Source: an uncultured archaeon
Lineage (GTDB): Archaea; Thermoproteota; Nitrososphaeria_A; Caldarchaeales; Calditenuaceae
Assembly (NCBI GenBank): GCA_938017985.1
Contig: CALIKS010000001.1
Location: 148,745 to 212,744, forward strand
Direction: 5' to 3'
Length of the DNA: 64,000 bases
Positions 38,252-45,188 of the stretch are shown here, piece after piece (position 1 is the first letter of the stretch; every line of letters begins with the position of its first letter). Made by a program: the position numbers and the translations under genes. The notes below the pieces were generated by a model. It did no database searches and had not been told where the DNA came from. It was given only the letters and a program-made list of their open reading frames with translations.

Positions 38252-39355
38252 TCATCCTTTTTTAACTACAGTGCCTATAAGTCCAGACCTAATCGCGTGG
38301 TCTGCTATGACTATTCCGGTTACTGCCTCGACGATTGGCACGGCCCTAGGTACAACTGAGGGGTCGTGTCGACCACTAATTCTGATTTCCTCTTCTTTCA
38401 GAGTATCTATGTTTAACGTCATTTGTGGCTTTGCAATAGATGCTGGCGGTTTAAATGCTACGCGGAATACTATTTCTCTACCTGTTGACAGTCCTCCAAC
38501 GATTCCACCGGCGTTATTAGTTTTTGGAACTATTTTTCCATCGATTAATGTAAAAGGATCATTATGTATTGAGCCGAGCATTCTGCTTGCATTAAATCCA
38601 CTTCCAACCTCAATGCCTTTTACTGCAGGAATGGAGAAGATTGCTTTGGCAAGGTCTGAGTCGAGGGCGTCAAAGACTGGCTCTCCAAGTCCTACTGGAA
38701 CATTTGTCACGATGCATTCGATTATGCCTCCTATACTGTCTCCCTCCCTCCTCAATCTGATCAGCAGTTCATTCATTTTTTGAGCAGCGTCTTGGTCTGG
38801 ACATCTAACCTCGTTTGTGTATCTATTTTGTCTTATTTCGTCGATTGATAGAGGCCGCGACTCTATGCTTCCTATGCTCTTAGTATAGGCTAAGACTTCG
38901 ATCCCGAGTATTTCTTTGATTAGTTTTAGTGCAATTGCTCCAGCCATTACGTATCCCGTAGTAATTCTTCCAGAGAATCTTCCTCCTCCTCTCCAGTCAT
39001 TGAATCCGCCGTATTTTACGAATGAAAAGTAATCAGCATGGCTAGGCCTCGGAATTTTTTTAAATATTATATATGGTGTAGAGTCCACGTCCTTATTCCA
39101 AACAAGCATCGCTATCGGTGCACCAGTTGTATAGCCGTCTAGTACGCCGCTAAGTATCTCGACTTTGTCCTCCTCCTTTCTCTGGGTCGTTATGAATGAC
39201 TCACCAGGCTTCCTAAGATCAAGGAAGGACTGGATCTCGTATTCTGATATTGGGAGCCCTGCTGGGCAACCATCAATTACTACTCCTATGCATTTACCGT
39301 GGCTCTCTCCGAAACTAACCACGACAAATCGCTTCCCTAACACATTACCCGTCAT
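38252..39355 (-). CDS. aroC: chorismate synthase
   Basis: Last step of the shikimate pathway, EPSP to chorismate, with reduced FMN as cofactor. Recognised by VVSFGESHGKCIGVVIDGCP, RPSHADYFSFVKYG, NDWRGGGRFSGRIT, and RHDPSVVPRAVPI; RPGHADY is more usual than RPSHADY. ATG at 39355 is chosen because GGGTGG lies 5 bases upstream and the family starts at GNxxGxxF; the open frame continues to 39388. It overlaps aroA by 11 bases. Confidence 0.95.
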   Translation of the reverse strand: MTGNVLGKRFVVVSFGESHGKCIGVVIDGCPAGLPISEYEIQSFLDLRKPGESFITTQRKEEDKVEILSGVLDGYTTGAPIAMLVWNKDVDSTPYIIFKKIPRPSHADYFSFVKYGGFNDWRGGGRFSGRITTGYVMAGAIALKLIKEILGIEVLAYTKSIGSIESRPLSIDEIRQNRYTNEVRCPDQDAAQKMNELLIRLRREGDSIGGIIECIVTNVPVGLGEPVFDALDSDLAKAIFSIPAVKGIEVGSGFNASRMLGSIHNDPFTLIDGKIVPKTNNAGGIVGGLSTGREIVFRVAFKPPASIAKPQMTLNIDTLKEEEIRISGRHDPSVVPRAVPIVEAVTGIVIADHAIRSGLIGTVVKKG

Positions 39356-40628
39356 GAATGAATTCCACCCAGCATCCCAACGATTCAAGTTCTTTTAAAA
39401 ATTTCGGATATGAAATAGAGACGCAGTCAGGATCTTTAACCAAGACTTTCCCTCCTGAGTATATTGAGAGTAAAGCAAAAGCCATAAAGAGTCTATGGTC
39501 AGAATGAGGATCAAGCACAGCAGGCCTAGGCATACTCGGCACTATTTTAATGCCATCTAGCATTTCTATCGCTTGGATACCTGCCTTCCGTAGCTCTTTT
39601 GAAAGAACTGAAATTCTGTCGCTTTCCTTATACCTAGCATGCTTAACATCTGTTATCATTGTTTCACTATTAGCCGCTACGGCAAGTATTGCTATGACTG
39701 GCAATAAGTCTGGAGAATCTCTCAAAGAGATGCTTATTCCATTTAGGGTAGATTCTCTAGCCACCACTTCGTCATGAAGTTGTTCTATCTCTCCGCCCAT
39801 CTCTTTAATGATTCTTACTATTGCTGCGTCTGGTTGGGGTAAATCGGGATTAAGCCCCTTGACGATAACCGTACCACCAATCAGGAATGGAATTGCGAGG
39901 ATAAACGCGGCTAATCCATAGTCTCCGGGCACGTCGAAATCTGAGGATCTATAGCCAGTACTCTCTGTAATTATTTTTCCATCTGACATTATTGATTTTG
40001 CTCCGAAAAATTCTTGAGTTTTTATTGTTGCTTGAATGTAGGGCCTAGAAACTATATTGCCCTGAATGTTTATGGTTAGGCCCTGCTCAGTCTTCGCTCC
40101 TGCAATCATTAATCCACTAATGTATTGACTGCTAACTTCTCCAGTAATTGTGCAGTGACGTGATTTGTATCCACCTCCTTTAACGATTATTGGGGCATAA
40201 CCATTGAGCCTCGTTGACCAAGCCTCTACACCTAGTTGATGAAGGGCGTCAAGGAGTGGCTGCATGGGTCTTCTTCTTAGACTCTCATCCCCAGTCAATA
40301 TTGTATATCCACTCCTCACTAATCCTGCGATTGCTGTTAGAATTCTCAGAGTAGTCCCGGAATTTTTAGCATCAATTATATCTGGAGGCGTCTCCGGCAA
40401 ATCCACGCCTTCTATGACTAATTCTTCGCCATTCTGAATTATATTTGCGCCGAAAAGCCTCATGCCGTCTATTGATGCTGCTGTATCTAAAGATATGAGG
40501 GGATTATGAATTTTTGAAACCCCTTCAGCCAAAGAGGCTATGATAATACCTCTATGTGTGTAGCTCTTGCTTGGCGGAGCCTTGACAACACCCCTTGCTT
40601 CGTCACAAGTTATTCTAACTAGCGCCAC
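39345..40628 (-). CDS. aroA: 3-phosphoshikimate 1-carboxyvinyltransferase (EPSP synthase)
   Basis: Condenses shikimate 3-phosphate with PEP. It shows VVKAPPSKSYTHRGIIIASL, the PEP-binding NSGTTLRILTAI, TGDESLRRRPMQPLLDAL, DVPGDYGLAAFIL and the C-terminal DPHSDHRLFMAFALL. I place the start at the GTG of 40628 because GGAGAAGGTGG lies just before it and the protein then starts directly at VRITCDEARG; the open frame begins at 40685. It overlaps aroE by a few bases. The short LRRRPM region and glycines fit class I enzymes. Confidence 0.95.
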   Translation of the reverse strand: MALVRITCDEARGVVKAPPSKSYTHRGIIIASLAEGVSKIHNPLISLDTAASIDGMRLFGANIIQNGEELVIEGVDLPETPPDIIDAKNSGTTLRILTAIAGLVRSGYTILTGDESLRRRPMQPLLDALHQLGVEAWSTRLNGYAPIIVKGGGYKSRHCTITGEVSSQYISGLMIAGAKTEQGLTINIQGNIVSRPYIQATIKTQEFFGAKSIMSDGKIITESTGYRSSDFDVPGDYGLAAFILAIPFLIGGTVIVKGLNPDLPQPDAAIVRIIKEMGGEIEQLHDEVVARESTLNGISISLRDSPDLLPVIAILAVAANSETMITDVKHARYKESDRISVLSKELRKAGIQAIEMLDGIKIVPSMPRPAVLDPHSDHRLFMAFALLSIYSGGKVLVKDPDCVSISYPKFLKELESLGCWVEFIHDG

Positions 40629-41463
40629 TTCTTTTCCACCTTCTCCATAATTCATTCCGGACCACTCTTTCCATAAATGAGACATCTGGAGTTATGCCTG
40701 TCCATATCTTAAATGAGGCTGCTCCCTGCTCTACGAGGTGAATTACACCATCAATGGTTTTACAACCTCTTTTCATCGCTGCCCTAAGGAGTGGCGTACT
40801 TCTGTGCGAGTAAACAAGGTCATAAACGACATGATAACTTTCTAAGTTATTCGGATCGAATAGGAGTTTTTCTTCTACGAGACCAACCGGAGTAGCATTG
40901 ACCACTAATTCTGCCTTGGGAACAAATCTATTAACATCTTCAAGACTTACTATTTGTAATCTACTGCTTATCTTCGGCATCATTGATTCTCGAAGCTTAA
41001 TAGCCCTCTCCATTGTTCTATTCGCAATTATTATCATCCTTGTGCCCATTTTATCTAACGCATATACTACAGCTCTGGCAGATCCTCCGGCCCCTAGCAA
41101 TAGGCATGTGTCTATAGTTTTTACTCCTATTCTTGAGAGACTGGTTATGAAGCCTTCTACGTCAGTGTTAAAGCCAATCCAACCATCACTATGTCTGACA
41201 GTAGTATTGACAGCACCAGTCATCGAGGCCTCTTCTGACAGCTCTACTGCTATTTTTGCAACTTCTTCTTTATGAGGAATAGTTATGTTAAAACCTATGA
41301 ATTCTAGTTTCCATAACGATGTGAGCGTTTCTCCTAGCTTGAATGGATGTATGTCGATTGCTAAGTATATGTGAGGAAGACCATATAGCCATAGTGTTGA
41401 ATTATGCATTAAAGGGGATAGCGAGTGTGCCACTGGGTGGCCTATCACGGCTAAAAATGACAT
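40615..41463 (-). CDS. aroE: shikimate dehydrogenase
   Basis: NADPH reduction of 3-dehydroshikimate, 282 residues. LAVIGHPVAHSLSPLMHN is the shikimate-binding SxS motif, GFNITIPHKEEVA contains the catalytic Lys, TDVEGFI the Asp, LLGAGGSARAVVYAL the NADP site, and VVYDLVYSHRSTPLL the C-terminal block. It overlaps aroD by 13 bases and aroA on the other end, so all are translated in series. Confidence 0.96.
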   Translation of the reverse strand: MSFLAVIGHPVAHSLSPLMHNSTLWLYGLPHIYLAIDIHPFKLGETLTSLWKLEFIGFNITIPHKEEVAKIAVELSEEASMTGAVNTTVRHSDGWIGFNTDVEGFITSLSRIGVKTIDTCLLLGAGGSARAVVYALDKMGTRMIIIANRTMERAIKLRESMMPKISSRLQIVSLEDVNRFVPKAELVVNATPVGLVEEKLLFDPNNLESYHVVYDLVYSHRSTPLLRAAMKRGCKTIDGVIHLVEQGAASFKIWTGITPDVSFMERVVRNELWRRWKRSGAS

Positions 41464-42164
41464 TTTTCAGCCAGCCATGAGAGTTTCTCTAACTCTTTCT
41501 TCAACTCTATGTAAGATAGCTGACCCGGGGCTACTGGTCTTGAACCACTATGAACATATGTGAAGGGTGCACCTAAAAATATGCTTAGTATACGTGTTAA
41601 GACCCATTCGTCTCCCATACAGAAGGCAATTAACCGGCCTCTTACCCAGTCATGCCTATACAGTGATAGCAAATTGGTAACATCAAATACTTGACGAGGA
41701 TAAGTGACTATTTTCCAAAAGTCACCTGCATGACGCATTTCAGTTAATAATTTCTCTAATTCATCTGCGGGGGGGTGTTCCATGGTGAAATGTTTTGAAA
41801 GAATTATTTTTGCACCATTAATTTTTAGTCTATCTATAAATGACTTGTCACATACGTATGTATCATACTCTATGTCTATGTAGGATGCTATTGATGATGA
41901 TTCTAATAGAATCCTCTTCCTTTCTTCTTCACTACCAGAGAATGCCCCACCTTCATTTTTATTTCTTACCGTAGAAACTATTTCGAAGCCCTTTTTATAA
42001 GCCTCCTTTAGGACTGATAGATAGTTATTGTCTAAGAGATAGTCAAGTCTTAGCTCAACCATTTTAACCCCCATCTCCTTCAGAGCTACTAAGGACTGTA
42101 TAGCTTCTCCTGAATTTTTCCCAACTACTGAGACGCAAATCCTTTCTTCAGCCCTAAACCTCAT
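41451..42164 (-). CDS. aroD: 3-dehydroquinate dehydratase, type I
   Basis: Dehydrates 3-dehydroquinate through a Schiff base. At 237 residues it has VELRLDYL near the N-terminus, ILSKHFTMEHPP with the catalytic His, and FWKIVTYPRQ with the Schiff-base Lys, then RLIAFCMGDEWVLTRILS and a GSRPVAPGQLS end. It overlaps aroB' by 11 bases and aroE by 13. Confidence 0.94.
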   Translation of the reverse strand: MRFRAEERICVSVVGKNSGEAIQSLVALKEMGVKMVELRLDYLLDNNYLSVLKEAYKKGFEIVSTVRNKNEGGAFSGSEEERKRILLESSSIASYIDIEYDTYVCDKSFIDRLKINGAKIILSKHFTMEHPPADELEKLLTEMRHAGDFWKIVTYPRQVFDVTNLLSLYRHDWVRGRLIAFCMGDEWVLTRILSIFLGAPFTYVHSGSRPVAPGQLSYIELKKELEKLSWLAEKCHF

Positions 42165-43158
42165 TTATTCCTTCCTCTACGCTTATCCCCATGTGTCTGC
42201 CCGCTTTTCCAGTTAGATGTACAAGGACCTCATCGCCGATATTTATCTCAGTAACTCCAACTGGCTCACCGTCTCGTCTTACTAACCGAATCGTCTCAGC
42301 GTTCTGAAGAATAACAGAACCATCAAGGTTATCCGCCTCTGCAGCTATCAATATTAATGGTCGCCTTTCAATCTTAACTCTTCCAACAGTAGCGACTCGA
42401 GTATAGCCATCTTTTGAGACTATCAATACTCTTTTACCAGCTTTTAGTTCAGACAAATAATAGGTATTTGCACGTGGTCCTAAGGTGTAAAGATGTATTG
42501 CTCCGGCATTTATTCTAAATGGTCTAGGCTCTGTAAAACTAGAACCTATCACTTCGCTATGAACTAAAAATAGCATTCTTGACATGCTACCTACGAGGAG
42601 GCCTTCACCAATTCTTAGCATGTTTGTGGTGTCTATGCATGCTCTTTCACCCATACCTACATTTAAAATTTCCTTAACTTTGGCTGTAGCTAGTTCGACG
42701 CGTCTTACATAGTTGAGATAGTCCTGAATAATTGATATTTCCTCCATGTTTCTAGTCTTATAAACGACGCCGTCGACGCCTCTTTCTAGCACTCCGAAGA
42801 ACGTTTCAATGTCATCAATCTTATCAATTCTTACTAAAACTTTCGTGTTTAACCCCTGAAGCTTAGCGAGTATGTTTTCTAGAGGAATGATTCTCAGGTC
42901 TCTAGGTTCAATTAGTATTGAGGAAGCTCCTGCCTTCGCTTCTCTATAAATCAATTCGATGTCTGAGGGAGTCTTAAGCGAAATGATGGAAGTTCCTGAC
43001 TCTTTATTATATATCTTTACTTTGTCCTTTAGTTCAGGAGGAACGATATTACTTTGACAGAAAAGAGCACTGGCACCTCTCGCTACAGCTTCTATGGCCT
43101 CATCAGGCGTCTCAACATCTATGATAATTTCTTTTGATTCACTTTGATTTTGTTTCAA
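42154..43158 (-). CDS. aroB': 3-dehydroquinate synthase II
   Basis: Archaeal alternative to AroB: oxidative deamination and cyclisation of ADH to 3-dehydroquinate, using NAD. The 334-residue protein keeps the family block MGERACIDTTNMLRIGEGLLVGSMSRMLFLVHSE and RPFRINAGAIHLYTLGP, then KVGRVKIERRPLILI-like sequence at the C-terminus. It overlaps the ADH synthase gene by 20 bases, as its reaction partner. Together these two replace DAHP synthase and the bacterial AroB. Confidence 0.95.
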   Translation of the reverse strand: MKQNQSESKEIIIDVETPDEAIEAVARGASALFCQSNIVPPELKDKVKIYNKESGTSIISLKTPSDIELIYREAKAGASSILIEPRDLRIIPLENILAKLQGLNTKVLVRIDKIDDIETFFGVLERGVDGVVYKTRNMEEISIIQDYLNYVRRVELATAKVKEILNVGMGERACIDTTNMLRIGEGLLVGSMSRMLFLVHSEVIGSSFTEPRPFRINAGAIHLYTLGPRANTYYLSELKAGKRVLIVSKDGYTRVATVGRVKIERRPLILIAAEADNLDGSVILQNAETIRLVRRDGEPVGVTEINIGDEVLVHLTGKAGRHMGISVEEGINEV

Positions 43159-43933
43159 TAATGCTCAGCGCCTCCTTTACATCCGCATCTTCTATCACTA
43201 TTGCTCTTAATGCCTTTACTATCAAGTCTGGGAATTCATGCATGAAGACATTCCTTCCAATTGTTACGCCTATTGCTCCCGCATCCATTGCTGCTCTCGC
43301 CATGCTTAATACTGCTTCGTCACTGTCAACCTTTGGGCCACCCGCCATAACTATAGGTGCAGGACAAGCCTCGACAACTTTCCTGAATGTCTTTTCATCA
43401 CCGCTAAAGGGAACTTTAACGATGTCGGCGCCTAATTCCGCCCCTACCCTTGCCACGTGAGCTAATATATTCGGGTCGTTTGGGTCCTTCACTCCCTCGC
43501 CCCTAGGATACATCATCGCTATCATTGGTAATCCCAGCGAGTCGCATTCGTCTGCCAAGAGGCCTAGCTTTCTCAACATGTATGGCTCCATTTTGCATCC
43601 GATGTTTATGTGTACTGAAAGTCCATCTGCACCCAGTCGAATAGCAGAGAGAGCTGATCCTACCCTGACCTTCCAGTTGGGGTCTGGACCAATCGATGTA
43701 CTGGCTGAAAAATGCACAATAAAGCCAATATTTGGTACACGCTTCATATGCTTGATTATTCCTTTTTGTACAAGAAATGCCGTAGCACCGCCTTTTTCAA
43801 TTTTTTCAATTGTCTCATAAATCTTGTCGAGTCCTTTCATTGGGCCAGCTGTGATGCCGTGGTCCATTGGGATGCATAGCATTTTTCCTCTTTCTGTTAT
43901 TCTACTTAGCCGAACATCTTTACCAGCAACCAT
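43139..43933 (-). CDS. 2-amino-3,7-dideoxy-D-threo-hept-6-ulosonate synthase
   Basis: First step of the archaeal shikimate entry: condenses aspartate semialdehyde with a 6-deoxy-5-ketofructose phosphate-derived unit. A 264-residue class I aldolase (AroA'/LsrF family): CIPMDHGITAGP (Asp24, His25), IKHMKRVPNIGFIVH, and the Schiff-base Lys173 in ADIVKVPFSGDEK, then PIVMAGGPKV and GVTIGRNVFMHE. The start ATG overlaps the asd stop as TGATG, so the enzyme that makes its substrate is translated directly before it. Confidence 0.94.
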   Translation of the reverse strand: MVAGKDVRLSRITERGKMLCIPMDHGITAGPMKGLDKIYETIEKIEKGGATAFLVQKGIIKHMKRVPNIGFIVHFSASTSIGPDPNWKVRVGSALSAIRLGADGLSVHINIGCKMEPYMLRKLGLLADECDSLGLPMIAMMYPRGEGVKDPNDPNILAHVARVGAELGADIVKVPFSGDEKTFRKVVEACPAPIVMAGGPKVDSDEAVLSMARAAMDAGAIGVTIGRNVFMHEFPDLIVKALRAIVIEDADVKEALSIIETKSK

Positions 43934-44988
43934 CAGGAATTCAACCTCCTTGTAGCAATTAAAAGTTCCGCTGTAAGTATAGCCGTCCCCGCGGCACCTC
44001 TAATTAAGTTATGACTCAGCGATATGAATGTATAATTGCGCGGCTTATTAGACTTTCTAATCCTACCAATCGTCACTACCATGCCCTTAACATCTCCGAA
44101 ATCAACATCAAGCCTAGGTTGCGGCCTATCCGGCTCGTTGAAGACGTGAATTGGTTTTTTTGGAGCCGATGGTAACTCGAGCATTTGCGGCAAACCCGAA
44201 AAACTGCTTAACGTATCCTTAACATCATCAATACCTGCATCTTCCATGAGTTCTACTTGTATAACCTCTAAGTGTCCAACGATCGTTGGTGCACGTGTAC
44301 ATGTAGCATCGATCAGAATGTCTGCAGGTATTACTTTACCGTCTTTTAGCCTTCCTAAAATTTTTTTAGGTTCTTCGACGACTTTTTCTTCCTCGCCATT
44401 TATGTAGGGTATGATATTTCCAAGTATTGCCATTGATGGTACTCCGTTATAGCCAGCACCTGAGACGGCCTGCATCGATACCAGATTTGCATACTTTATT
44501 CCATATCTATCCATTAATGCCTTCAATGGCATTACGAAACCTACGGTTGTACAATTAGGCGTAGTGACGATAAATCCATCCCACCCTCTATTCTTTTTCT
44601 GCACCTCGATGAGGTTTAGATGCTCTGGATTTATTTCAGGAACAATCAGGGGAACATCATGCCAAGCCCTATGTGCTGAGGCGTCACTGATCACTGGAAA
44701 CCCAGCCTGCGCAAATTTTGGCTCAATCTCCCTTGCGGCCGATGTGGGTAGACAGCTAAATACAATGTCAGCGTCTATCTTTGCTGGATCAGAGGGCAAC
44801 ACTTCTAGGCTCTTATACATAGCTGGCACATTACCTTTACCCATGTAGGCATCCTCAAGCGTTTTGCCGACGTTAGATCTTCCCGTAACAGCTGATATCT
44901 CAAACCATGGATTATCTGCAAGCAACTCGACGTAAATTTGTCCAACCATCCCTGTGGCTCCCAGAATCGCTGCTTTTACTCTACCCAA
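43933..44988 (-). CDS. asd: aspartate-semialdehyde dehydrogenase
   Basis: Reduces aspartyl phosphate to aspartate semialdehyde, the precursor used by ADH synthase and homoserine dehydrogenase. Visible are AAILGATGMVGQ, DIVFSCLPTSAAREIE, the active-site Cys in VTTPNCTTVGFV, ADILIDATCTRAPTIVGHL and CPQPRLD-like PQPRLDVDFG. It belongs to the archaeal/fungal type, whose relatives in some archaea act as malonyl-CoA reductases. I place the start at TTG 44988, since GGTGA (44996-45000) lies 5 bases before it; the GTG at 44997 overlaps that site. It is the first gene of the aro operon. Confidence 0.92.
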   Translation of the reverse strand: MGRVKAAILGATGMVGQIYVELLADNPWFEISAVTGRSNVGKTLEDAYMGKGNVPAMYKSLEVLPSDPAKIDADIVFSCLPTSAAREIEPKFAQAGFPVISDASAHRAWHDVPLIVPEINPEHLNLIEVQKKNRGWDGFIVTTPNCTTVGFVMPLKALMDRYGIKYANLVSMQAVSGAGYNGVPSMAILGNIIPYINGEEEKVVEEPKKILGRLKDGKVIPADILIDATCTRAPTIVGHLEVIQVELMEDAGIDDVKDTLSSFSGLPQMLELPSAPKKPIHVFNEPDRPQPRLDVDFGDVKGMVVTIGRIRKSNKPRNYTFISLSHNLIRGAAGTAILTAELLIATRRLNS

Positions 44989-45028
44989 ACAATTCACCTC
45001 TCACAAAAACTATTCTACATTCAGACAA
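44981..45028 (-). CDS. possible 15-codon leader peptide before asd
   Basis: A strong GGAGGTG ribosome binding site (45036-45042) directly after the P1 stem serves no annotated gene. Eight bases on, a TTG opens a 15-codon frame (MSECRIVFVRGELFG) that ends inside the asd start region, overlapping it by 8 bases. Such an arrangement could couple translation of asd to that of the leader. It is very short and may be chance. Confidence 0.2.
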   Translation of the reverse strand: MSECRIVFVRGELFG

Positions 45029-45042
45029 TAGTCAACACCTCC

Positions 45043-45155
45043 AGAGCAGGGGGAAAGGGAGGAAGAAACTTAACTCTTCCAAGCATAGAAATAGGCGTAG
45101 GTGGTAAACCCTGTAAATTTAAAGTTACTGCACCCCACGCCTATCCCCCTGCTCT
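45043..45155 (-). ncRNA. candidate structured leader RNA of the asd-aro operon
   Basis: The region folds into three stems. P1: AGAGCAGGGGGA (45043-45054) pairs exactly with TCCCCCTGCTCT (45144-45155), 12 bp. P2: ATAGGCGT (45091-45098) pairs with ACGCCTAT (45137-45144) and continues as GGTG/CACC (45100-45103 with 45131-45134). P3: GGAAGA (45061-45066) pairs with TCTTCC (45075-45080). This is a three-way junction of about 113 bases, GC-rich in an AT-rich genome. A TATA-like box lies about 25 bases upstream in minus orientation, so the RNA would open the asd transcript. GGAGGTG follows P1 at 45036-45042. I know no riboswitch class that matches. Confidence 0.5.
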
Positions 45156-45178
45156 AGCATTTTGCGTAGGAAAACTCT

Positions 45179-45188
45179 AATTTAAAGG
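45179..45188. promoter_or_regulatory. shared TATA-like box, asd (minus) and shikimate kinase (plus)
   Basis: AATTTAAAGG on the plus strand reads CCTTTAAATT on the minus strand. It stands about 25 bases before the structured leader on the minus side and about 27 bases before the ATG of shikimate kinase on the plus side, the archaeal TATA distances, and would make the kinase message nearly leaderless. Inference from spacing. Confidence 0.4.

What the first reader, a model, noticed from the sequence alone, without database searches (positions are those of the whole stretch)
44981..45188. Three-stem structured leader at the head of the asd-aro operon
Between the divergent asd and shikimate-kinase genes, three nested stems (12 bp, 8+4 bp, 6 bp) form a three-way junction of 113 bases. 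All main arms are exact complements, and the region is GC-rich in an AT-rich genome. A TATA-like box 25 bases upstream in minus orientation would place the RNA at the 5' end of the asd transcript. A strong GGAGGTG site follows the closing stem but serves no annotated gene, with a 15-codon frame running into the asd start. This has the layout of a cis-regulatory RNA or riboswitch controlling an amino acid operon. I could not match it to TPP, fluoride, lysine or another class I know.
Basis: partly seen in the sequence, partly recalled or inferred. Interest (0 to 1): 0.72.

Follow-up and report, generated by a model that had tools for sequence, protein, structure and literature searches.

The report
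Archaeal aromatic-amino-acid leader-peptide attenuator
In front of an archaeal operon that makes aromatic amino acids lies a folded RNA that also encodes a tiny peptide rich in tyrosine, phenylalanine and tryptophan, and relatives share it, so the cell probably senses these amino acids by how ribosomes move along that peptide, a control known from bacteria for which I found no archaeal report.

Summary
The structure is real (minus-strand RNA fold z = -4.4) and conserved. All 11 same-family genomes with asd carry it directly upstream of asd, single copy, with compensatory changes in P1 and P2. No Rfam family matches. Frame, aromatic run and stop are conserved in all 11. In two other families of the order the operon starts with lysC; there too a 5' leader ORF full of Phe/Tyr/Trp sits inside an inverted repeat. 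In nine of those 12 genomes the repeat's 3' arm can alternatively pair with the lysC Shine-Dalgarno. So this is most likely a ribosome-mediated leader-peptide attenuator sensing Phe/Tyr(/Trp)-tRNA charging at the head of the archaeal shikimate operon, not a metabolite riboswitch. The sensing logic is inferred; the switch is clear in f3-g6 and f4 but weak in the window's own family. I found no published archaeal example in the open-access library searched. In passing: trpE in the same and related archaea seems to be entered by a +1 frameshift at a Trp codon.

The parts
45179..45186 (-). TATA-like box TTTAAATT, about 30 nt upstream of the P1 5' arm
   Evidence: Sequence; a TATA-like box at a similar distance (about 28-35 nt) in the 10 relatives.
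45145..45154 (-). P1 5' arm GAGCAGGGGG, at the probable 5' end of the transcript; holds the SD-like AGGGGGAT of the leader ORF
   Evidence: A GG/CC insertion in both arms of L030-L032 keeps the pairing.
45070..45138 (-). Leader ORF (GTG start proposed): VGCSNFKFTGFTTYAYFYAWKS*
   Evidence: frame, aromatic run and stop conserved in 11 of 11 family genomes; start codon and translation inferred.
45131..45141 (-). P2 5' arm (GGCGTGGGGTG), contains the proposed leader start codon
45094..45103 (-). P2 3' arm (CACCTACGCC), overlaps the first aromatic codons
   Evidence: changes on both sides at three P2 pairs, plus G-C/G-U/A-U variation at a fourth.
45079..45099 (-). Aromatic codon block TAC GCC TAT TTC TAT GCT TGG (Tyr Ala Tyr Phe Tyr Ala Trp), proposed stalling site
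   Evidence: differences between species concentrate at third codon positions (39/42/86).
45061..45080 (-). P3 hairpin GGAAGA..TCTTCC with the leader stop codon TAA in its loop
45044..45053 (-). P1 3' arm CCCCCTGCTC, C-rich, anti-SD-like, after the leader stop
45036..45042 (-). GGAGGTG, SD-like, directly after P1; predicted less accessible when the P1 5' arm is occupied (0.52 to 0.26 unpaired)
44981..45028 (-). 15-residue frame TTG..TAG overlapping the asd start; possible coupling ORF, seen only in the window genome
   Evidence: not present in relatives.
43933..44988 (-). asd, first gene of the operon
   Evidence: TIGR00978 above cut-off.
39345..43933 (-). Rest of operon: ADH synthase, DHQ synthase II, aroD, aroE, aroA
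   Evidence: DHQ synthase II and aroD are best hits below the curated cut-offs.

Best explanation
The element is a 5' leader that regulates the shikimate/aromatic operon by ribosome-mediated attenuation. Transcription starts just upstream of P1. A ribosome loads on the leader ORF, whose start region lies in the P1 5' arm and P2, and translates a peptide of about 22-30 residues that ends in a Tyr/Phe(/Trp) run. When charged Tyr-, Phe- or Trp-tRNA is scarce the ribosome stalls in that run: it has cleared the P1 5' arm, which pairs with the C/U-rich 3' arm (P1), and the start of the first structural gene is left free (ON). When these amino acids are plentiful, ribosomes keep reloading on and clearing the leader and occupy the 5' arm; the released 3' arm then pairs with the Shine-Dalgarno of the first gene (clear in f3-g6 and f4, weak in the window family) and expression falls (OFF). 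Shown: conserved structure, conserved coding frame with aromatic run, order-wide position at the operon head, and mutually exclusive pairings in nine genomes. Inferred: translation of the leader, stalling, the direction of the response, and whether the output in the window's own family is translational or transcriptional.
For: Conserved leader ORF with the same frame and an aromatic C-terminal run in 11 of 11 family genomes from 4 genera. In the TTYxYF[FY] block, differences by codon position are 39/42/86, so change is concentrated at third positions. P1 has a compensatory GG/CC insertion and P2 has changes on both sides at three pairs. A covariance model finds one true copy per genome, always at asd. 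The operon makes the aromatic precursors from aspartate semialdehyde. After the idea was formed on family f1, I looked at operon heads in other families. In f3 and f4, where lysC is first, 12 genomes of 6 genera also have aromatic leaders, for example AFTYYWPFGYTTFSFFYYRG*, GFSTFTTFSYYYRW* and VFFAFWSYYYFAPA*. Best 12-codon windows hold 4-8 aromatic residues in all 23 leaders against 1-4 in 23 control upstream regions of pheA and hisG. In nine f3-g6/f4 genomes the P1 3' arm can sequester the lysC SD (9-18 pairs): SD unpaired 0.17-0.61 with P1 formed against 0.00-0.21 with the 5' arm occupied; shuffling the 3' arm gives fewer pairs in eight of the nine.
Against: No expression, ribosome-profiling or starvation data. 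In the window's family, SD sequestration by the 3' arm is convincing in only one or two species (L031, perhaps L029) and absent or weak in genus g4 and the window. Predicted P1 forms equally with a ribosome stalled at the aromatic run or at the stop, so the decision would rest on occupancy of the 5' arm, not directly on the stall position. The window leader frame has no ATG (GTG proposed), and L222 lacks any ATG/GTG/TTG in the leader frame. Genera g10 and g14 have another layout (L229-L231). Genus g7 and families outside the order show no such leader.
Confidence: 0.77

Rival explanations
1. A metabolite-binding riboswitch (chorismate, Phe/Tyr or another ligand) whose aptamer is the three-way junction; the aromatic ORF is a by-product of a conserved RNA motif.
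For: Conserved three-way junction with covariation, conserved linker CCUAUUUCU.
Against: The aromatic run is kept while the RNA sequence around it changes completely between families; differences concentrate at third codon positions; a stop follows in the same frame in all 11 f1 genomes; no Rfam match.
Confidence: 0.08
2. A transcription attenuator: ribosome position on the leader decides whether RNA polymerase terminates before the first gene (U-rich tract or factor-dependent termination of the aCPSF1/FttA type). This is a variant of the best explanation that differs in the output.
For: Hairpins or P1 followed by U-rich tracts in several f3/f4 leaders (L217, L222-L224, L230) and one TTTTT after a weak stem in the window.
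Against: No U-run of five or more between leader stop and asd in the other f1 genomes inspected; in f3-g6/f4 the SD sequestration is explicit.
Confidence: 0.3
3. The leader peptide is an arrest peptide whose nascent chain senses free aromatic amino acids (TnaC-like) instead of codon occupancy by charged tRNA.
For: Within f1 the end of the peptide is similar (TT/TA-Y-x-Y-F).
Against: Across families only aromatic composition is conserved, not sequence, which fits codon sensing better.
Confidence: 0.1
4. A free-standing noncoding RNA or mobile-element remnant unrelated to the operon.
For: GC-rich structured RNA in an AT-rich genome.
Against: Fixed position upstream of the operon head, single copy, inside an ORF-bearing leader.
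Confidence: 0.03

Closest known systems
Bacterial amino-acid operon attenuators with leader peptides (trpL, pheL, hisL type)
   Same: Short leader ORF rich in the codons of the pathway's end products, inside mutually exclusive RNA structures, at the head of the biosynthetic operon.
   Different: Archaeal; leader start region lies in the 5' arm of the outer stem at the probable 5' end of the RNA; the aromatic run covers Tyr, Phe and Trp together; in f3-g6/f4 the output looks like SD sequestration, not an intrinsic terminator.
Translational attenuators (ermC type leader ORFs)
   Same: A leader ribosome decides whether the downstream SD is sequestered.
   Different: Signal proposed is aminoacyl-tRNA shortage, not an antibiotic; the leader SD and the gene SD compete for one anti-SD-like arm.
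T-box riboswitches
   Same: Would sense tRNA charging upstream of amino-acid genes.
   Different: No Rfam T-box match; the RNA is coding.
Archaeal regulators of aromatic genes: TrpY (Methanothermobacter), Tar (Thermococcus)
   Same: Control of aromatic amino-acid operons in archaea; PMC6737238 notes that Crenarchaeota almost all lack both and may use a third regulator or mechanism.
   Different: Those are DNA-binding proteins; this is a leader-peptide RNA device.

Membership tests
Ribosome-mediated leader-peptide attenuator | Short ORF upstream of the operon, enriched in codons of the regulated amino acids | tested here: met
   23 of 23 leaders in f1, f3, f4.
Ribosome-mediated leader-peptide attenuator | Frame conserved by selection on the coding sequence | tested here: met
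   Frame and stop conserved in f1 and differences concentrated at third positions.
Ribosome-mediated leader-peptide attenuator | Mutually exclusive RNA structures, one of which blocks the downstream gene | tested here: inconclusive
   Met in f3-g6 and f4; weak or absent in f1, the window's family.
Ribosome-mediated leader-peptide attenuator | Leader is translated and the ribosome stalls at the key codons under starvation | not testable with these tools
   Needs ribosome profiling or reporter work.
Ribosome-mediated leader-peptide attenuator | Downstream genes make the sensed amino acids | tested here: met
   asd, ADH synthase, DHQ synthase II, aroD, aroE, aroA.
Known riboswitch or Rfam cis-regulatory family | Match to a covariance model at the curated threshold | tested here: not met
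T-box | Specifier loop and antiterminator with T-box sequence, Rfam model match | tested here: not met
   No Rfam match.

The most novel reading that the evidence does not exclude
This archaeal order senses aromatic amino acids with ribosomes instead of DNA-binding repressors: a leader-peptide attenuator on the shikimate operon for Phe/Tyr(/Trp), and a prfB-like programmed +1 frameshift at a Trp codon that lets TrpE be made mainly when charged tRNA-Trp is short. Together they would be the missing third mechanism of aromatic gene control suggested for archaea that lack TrpY and Tar.
Probability: 0.5. Interest if true: 0.95.

Novelty: new variant of a known kind. Interest (0 to 1): 0.83.

Why it matters
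Leader-peptide attenuation is a textbook bacterial device; my searches of an open-access library found no archaeal example, and the mechanism of aromatic gene control in many archaea is stated to be unknown (PMC6737238). If confirmed it shows that archaea couple translation of a leader ORF to operon expression, gives a search pattern for finding more such leaders, and makes the question of how these archaea sense aromatic amino acids directly testable.

Tried and rejected
Rfam at gathering and at E <= 10: only chance hits. DNA-level search in relatives: weak hits, but several fell just upstream of asd, which gave the lead. Public genome-contig scan with Asd: no close relatives returned, so no organism names. 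SD sequestration by the P1 3' arm as a general mechanism in f1: not supported. Leader peptides at pheA and hisG in f1: none found. Aromatic leaders at ADH synthase or asd in genus g7 and in other classes: none convincing. MAFFT alignment of all 11 elements misplaces the P1 3' arm, so P1/P2 were aligned by hand. The whole genome was not available as a file. No protein structure prediction was needed.

Full report
What is there. Its fold energy is far from dinucleotide shuffles (z -4.4), although the opposite strand also scores -4.0. No Rfam family matches it or the homologous leaders. The downstream genes are asd, ADH synthase, DHQ synthase II, aroD, aroE and aroA, the archaeal route from aspartate semialdehyde to the aromatic precursors (aroD and DHQ synthase II are best hits below the curated cut-offs). 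The divergent gene is archaeal shikimate kinase.

Conservation. Asd was used to fetch loci from relatives. All 11 genomes of the same family with asd (window included; loci L022-L032) have the element immediately upstream, with a TATA-like box about 28-35 nt before P1. A covariance model built from eight of them (R1) finds it in 10 of 44 genomes of the order at E <= 1, all in this family and all at asd; the extra low-scoring matches are the antisense strand of the same place. L030 and L032, not used for building, are found at the right place at E 0.01-0.03. By hand alignment P1 has a GG insertion in the 5' arm matched by CC in the 3' arm in L030-L032, and P2 has changes on both sides at three pairs (C-G/U-A, U-A/C-G, A-U/G-C).

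The missed feature. An open frame runs through the element and ends in an aromatic run in every family member: TTYAYFYAWKS* (window), TTYAYFFGPTA* (L028), TTYPYFYFGN* (L030), TAYTYFYFWEG* (L031), GRAYFYTDAP* (L029) and so on. In g4 the frame starts with ATG at the predicted transcript start. In g1, g2 and g3 an ATG or GTG sits after an SD-like G-rich stretch in the P1 5' arm. In the window the proposed start is GTG 45138. Over the seven-codon aromatic block, pairwise differences fall 39/42/86 on codon positions 1/2/3.

Test in other families. In families f3 and f4 the operon begins with lysC, then asd and ADH synthase. I fetched the DNA upstream of the operon heads. Twelve genomes of six genera have an aromatic leader there: NVRDCLFFMAGYSWYCYSQPDASL*, AFTYYWPFGYTTFSFFYYRG*, LTYTGFSTFTTFSYYYRW*, MKAAHFYRFSGYTYYRI*, MAGFSLTGWRFFFGFWSYGYFALA*, ATTFFYSFWSYRYFTLA*, IVFFAFWSYYYFAPA* and relatives of these. 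Only composition and position are shared with f1, which points to codon sensing. The best 12-codon windows hold 4-8 aromatic residues in all 23 leaders and 1-4 in 23 upstream regions of pheA and hisG. Individual shuffle p-values are modest and relatives are not independent, so this is supporting, not decisive.

The switch. In f3-g6 and f4 the leader lies within an inverted repeat (AGAGAGGCG/CGCCTCTCT; GGAGGCG/CGCCTCC; CTGAGGCGG/CCGCCTCAG; GCCGGAGG/CCTCCGGC). The 5' arm holds the leader SD. The 3' arm can instead pair with the lysC SD (9-18 pairs). With P1 formed the SD is partly open (0.17-0.61 unpaired); with the 5' arm occupied it is closed (0.00-0.21). Shuffled 3' arms give fewer pairs in eight of nine genomes (L222 is the exception). 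This is the arrangement expected of a translational attenuator. In g10 and g14 the layout differs, and in L230 and L231 a hairpin with the leader stop in its loop is followed by a U-rich stretch, so the output may be transcriptional there. In the window's family the same exclusion is clear only in L031 and perhaps L029; in the window itself the GGAGGTG after P1 goes from 0.52 to 0.26 unpaired. The final step in this family is therefore open.

How it most likely works, step by step. Shown: conserved RNA structure; conserved leader frame with aromatic codons; position at the operon head across the order; competing pairings in nine genomes. Inferred: the leader is translated; scarcity of charged Tyr/Phe/Trp-tRNA stalls the ribosome in the aromatic run; this leaves the 5' arm free for P1 and the first gene open; plenty keeps the 5' arm occupied and closes it.

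What it is not. A classical aptamer riboswitch is disfavoured by the coding constraint and by the turnover of RNA sequence between families. A T-box is excluded at the Rfam level.

Organism. A same-order genome (G014) is one contig of 1,680,938 bases, which I recall as the length of the Candidatus Caldarchaeum subterraneum composite genome. If so the order is Caldarchaeales (Aigarchaeota; lineage). This is inference.

Literature. Searches for archaeal leader-peptide or ribosome-mediated attenuation found nothing, within an open-access library only. PMC6737238 states that Crenarchaeota almost all lack the TrpY and Tar regulators and may use a third regulator or mechanism.

Noticed in passing, and related. 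At trpE, 29 of 30 genes examined across the phylum carry a mini-ORF overlapping the start in another frame with a Trp codon at the site NUU UGG (mostly CUU or GUU), where the trpE frame reads UUU GGN; 16 of these have no ATG/GTG/TTG in the trpE frame between the last stop and that point, and in g1, g3, g4 and f16 a TAG sits directly before it. Typical: AUG AAC GGU GGC UAU CUU UGG C, which resembles the E. coli prfB site AGG GGG UAU CUU UGA C (my recollection) with Trp for stop. In g2, g8, most of g12 and some others a GTG lies in the trpE frame, so there part of the mini-ORF pattern could be a by-product of the TrpE N-terminus. A review of archaeal recoding does not mention tryptophan, and a general frameshifting review has no trpE in the part held.

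Noticed in passing
L151 (window genome G000:C1 near 314606, minus) and L152-L180: trpE appears to need a +1 frameshift: a mini-ORF such as MSGGLVW.., MGDLVW.., MNGGYLWL*, MCLWQ* overlaps the start, with the site CUU/GUU UGG and the trpE frame UUU GGN; 16 of 29 genes lack any start codon in the trpE frame before it and several have TAG right before the site. Candidate Trp-starvation-sensing programmed frameshift, prfB-like with UGG for UGA.
   Followed up: partly
window 45028-44981 (minus): SD GGAGGTG followed by a 15-residue frame that ends overlapping the asd TTG start; only in the window genome, possible translational coupling ORF.
   Followed up: partly
L234 (G060, another class), upstream of lysC: Possible weaker aromatic leader VTGDCVFRRLSVYYALYVSVC* at the lysC head outside the order.
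   Followed up: no
L230, L231 (genus g10), upstream of lysC: Hairpin with the leader stop codon in its loop followed by a U-rich stretch (terminator-like), suggesting transcriptional attenuation in this genus.
   Followed up: partly
L033-L035 (G018, G020, G016) asd: Asd matches with one in-frame TGA reported inside the matched stretch or at its edge.
   Followed up: no
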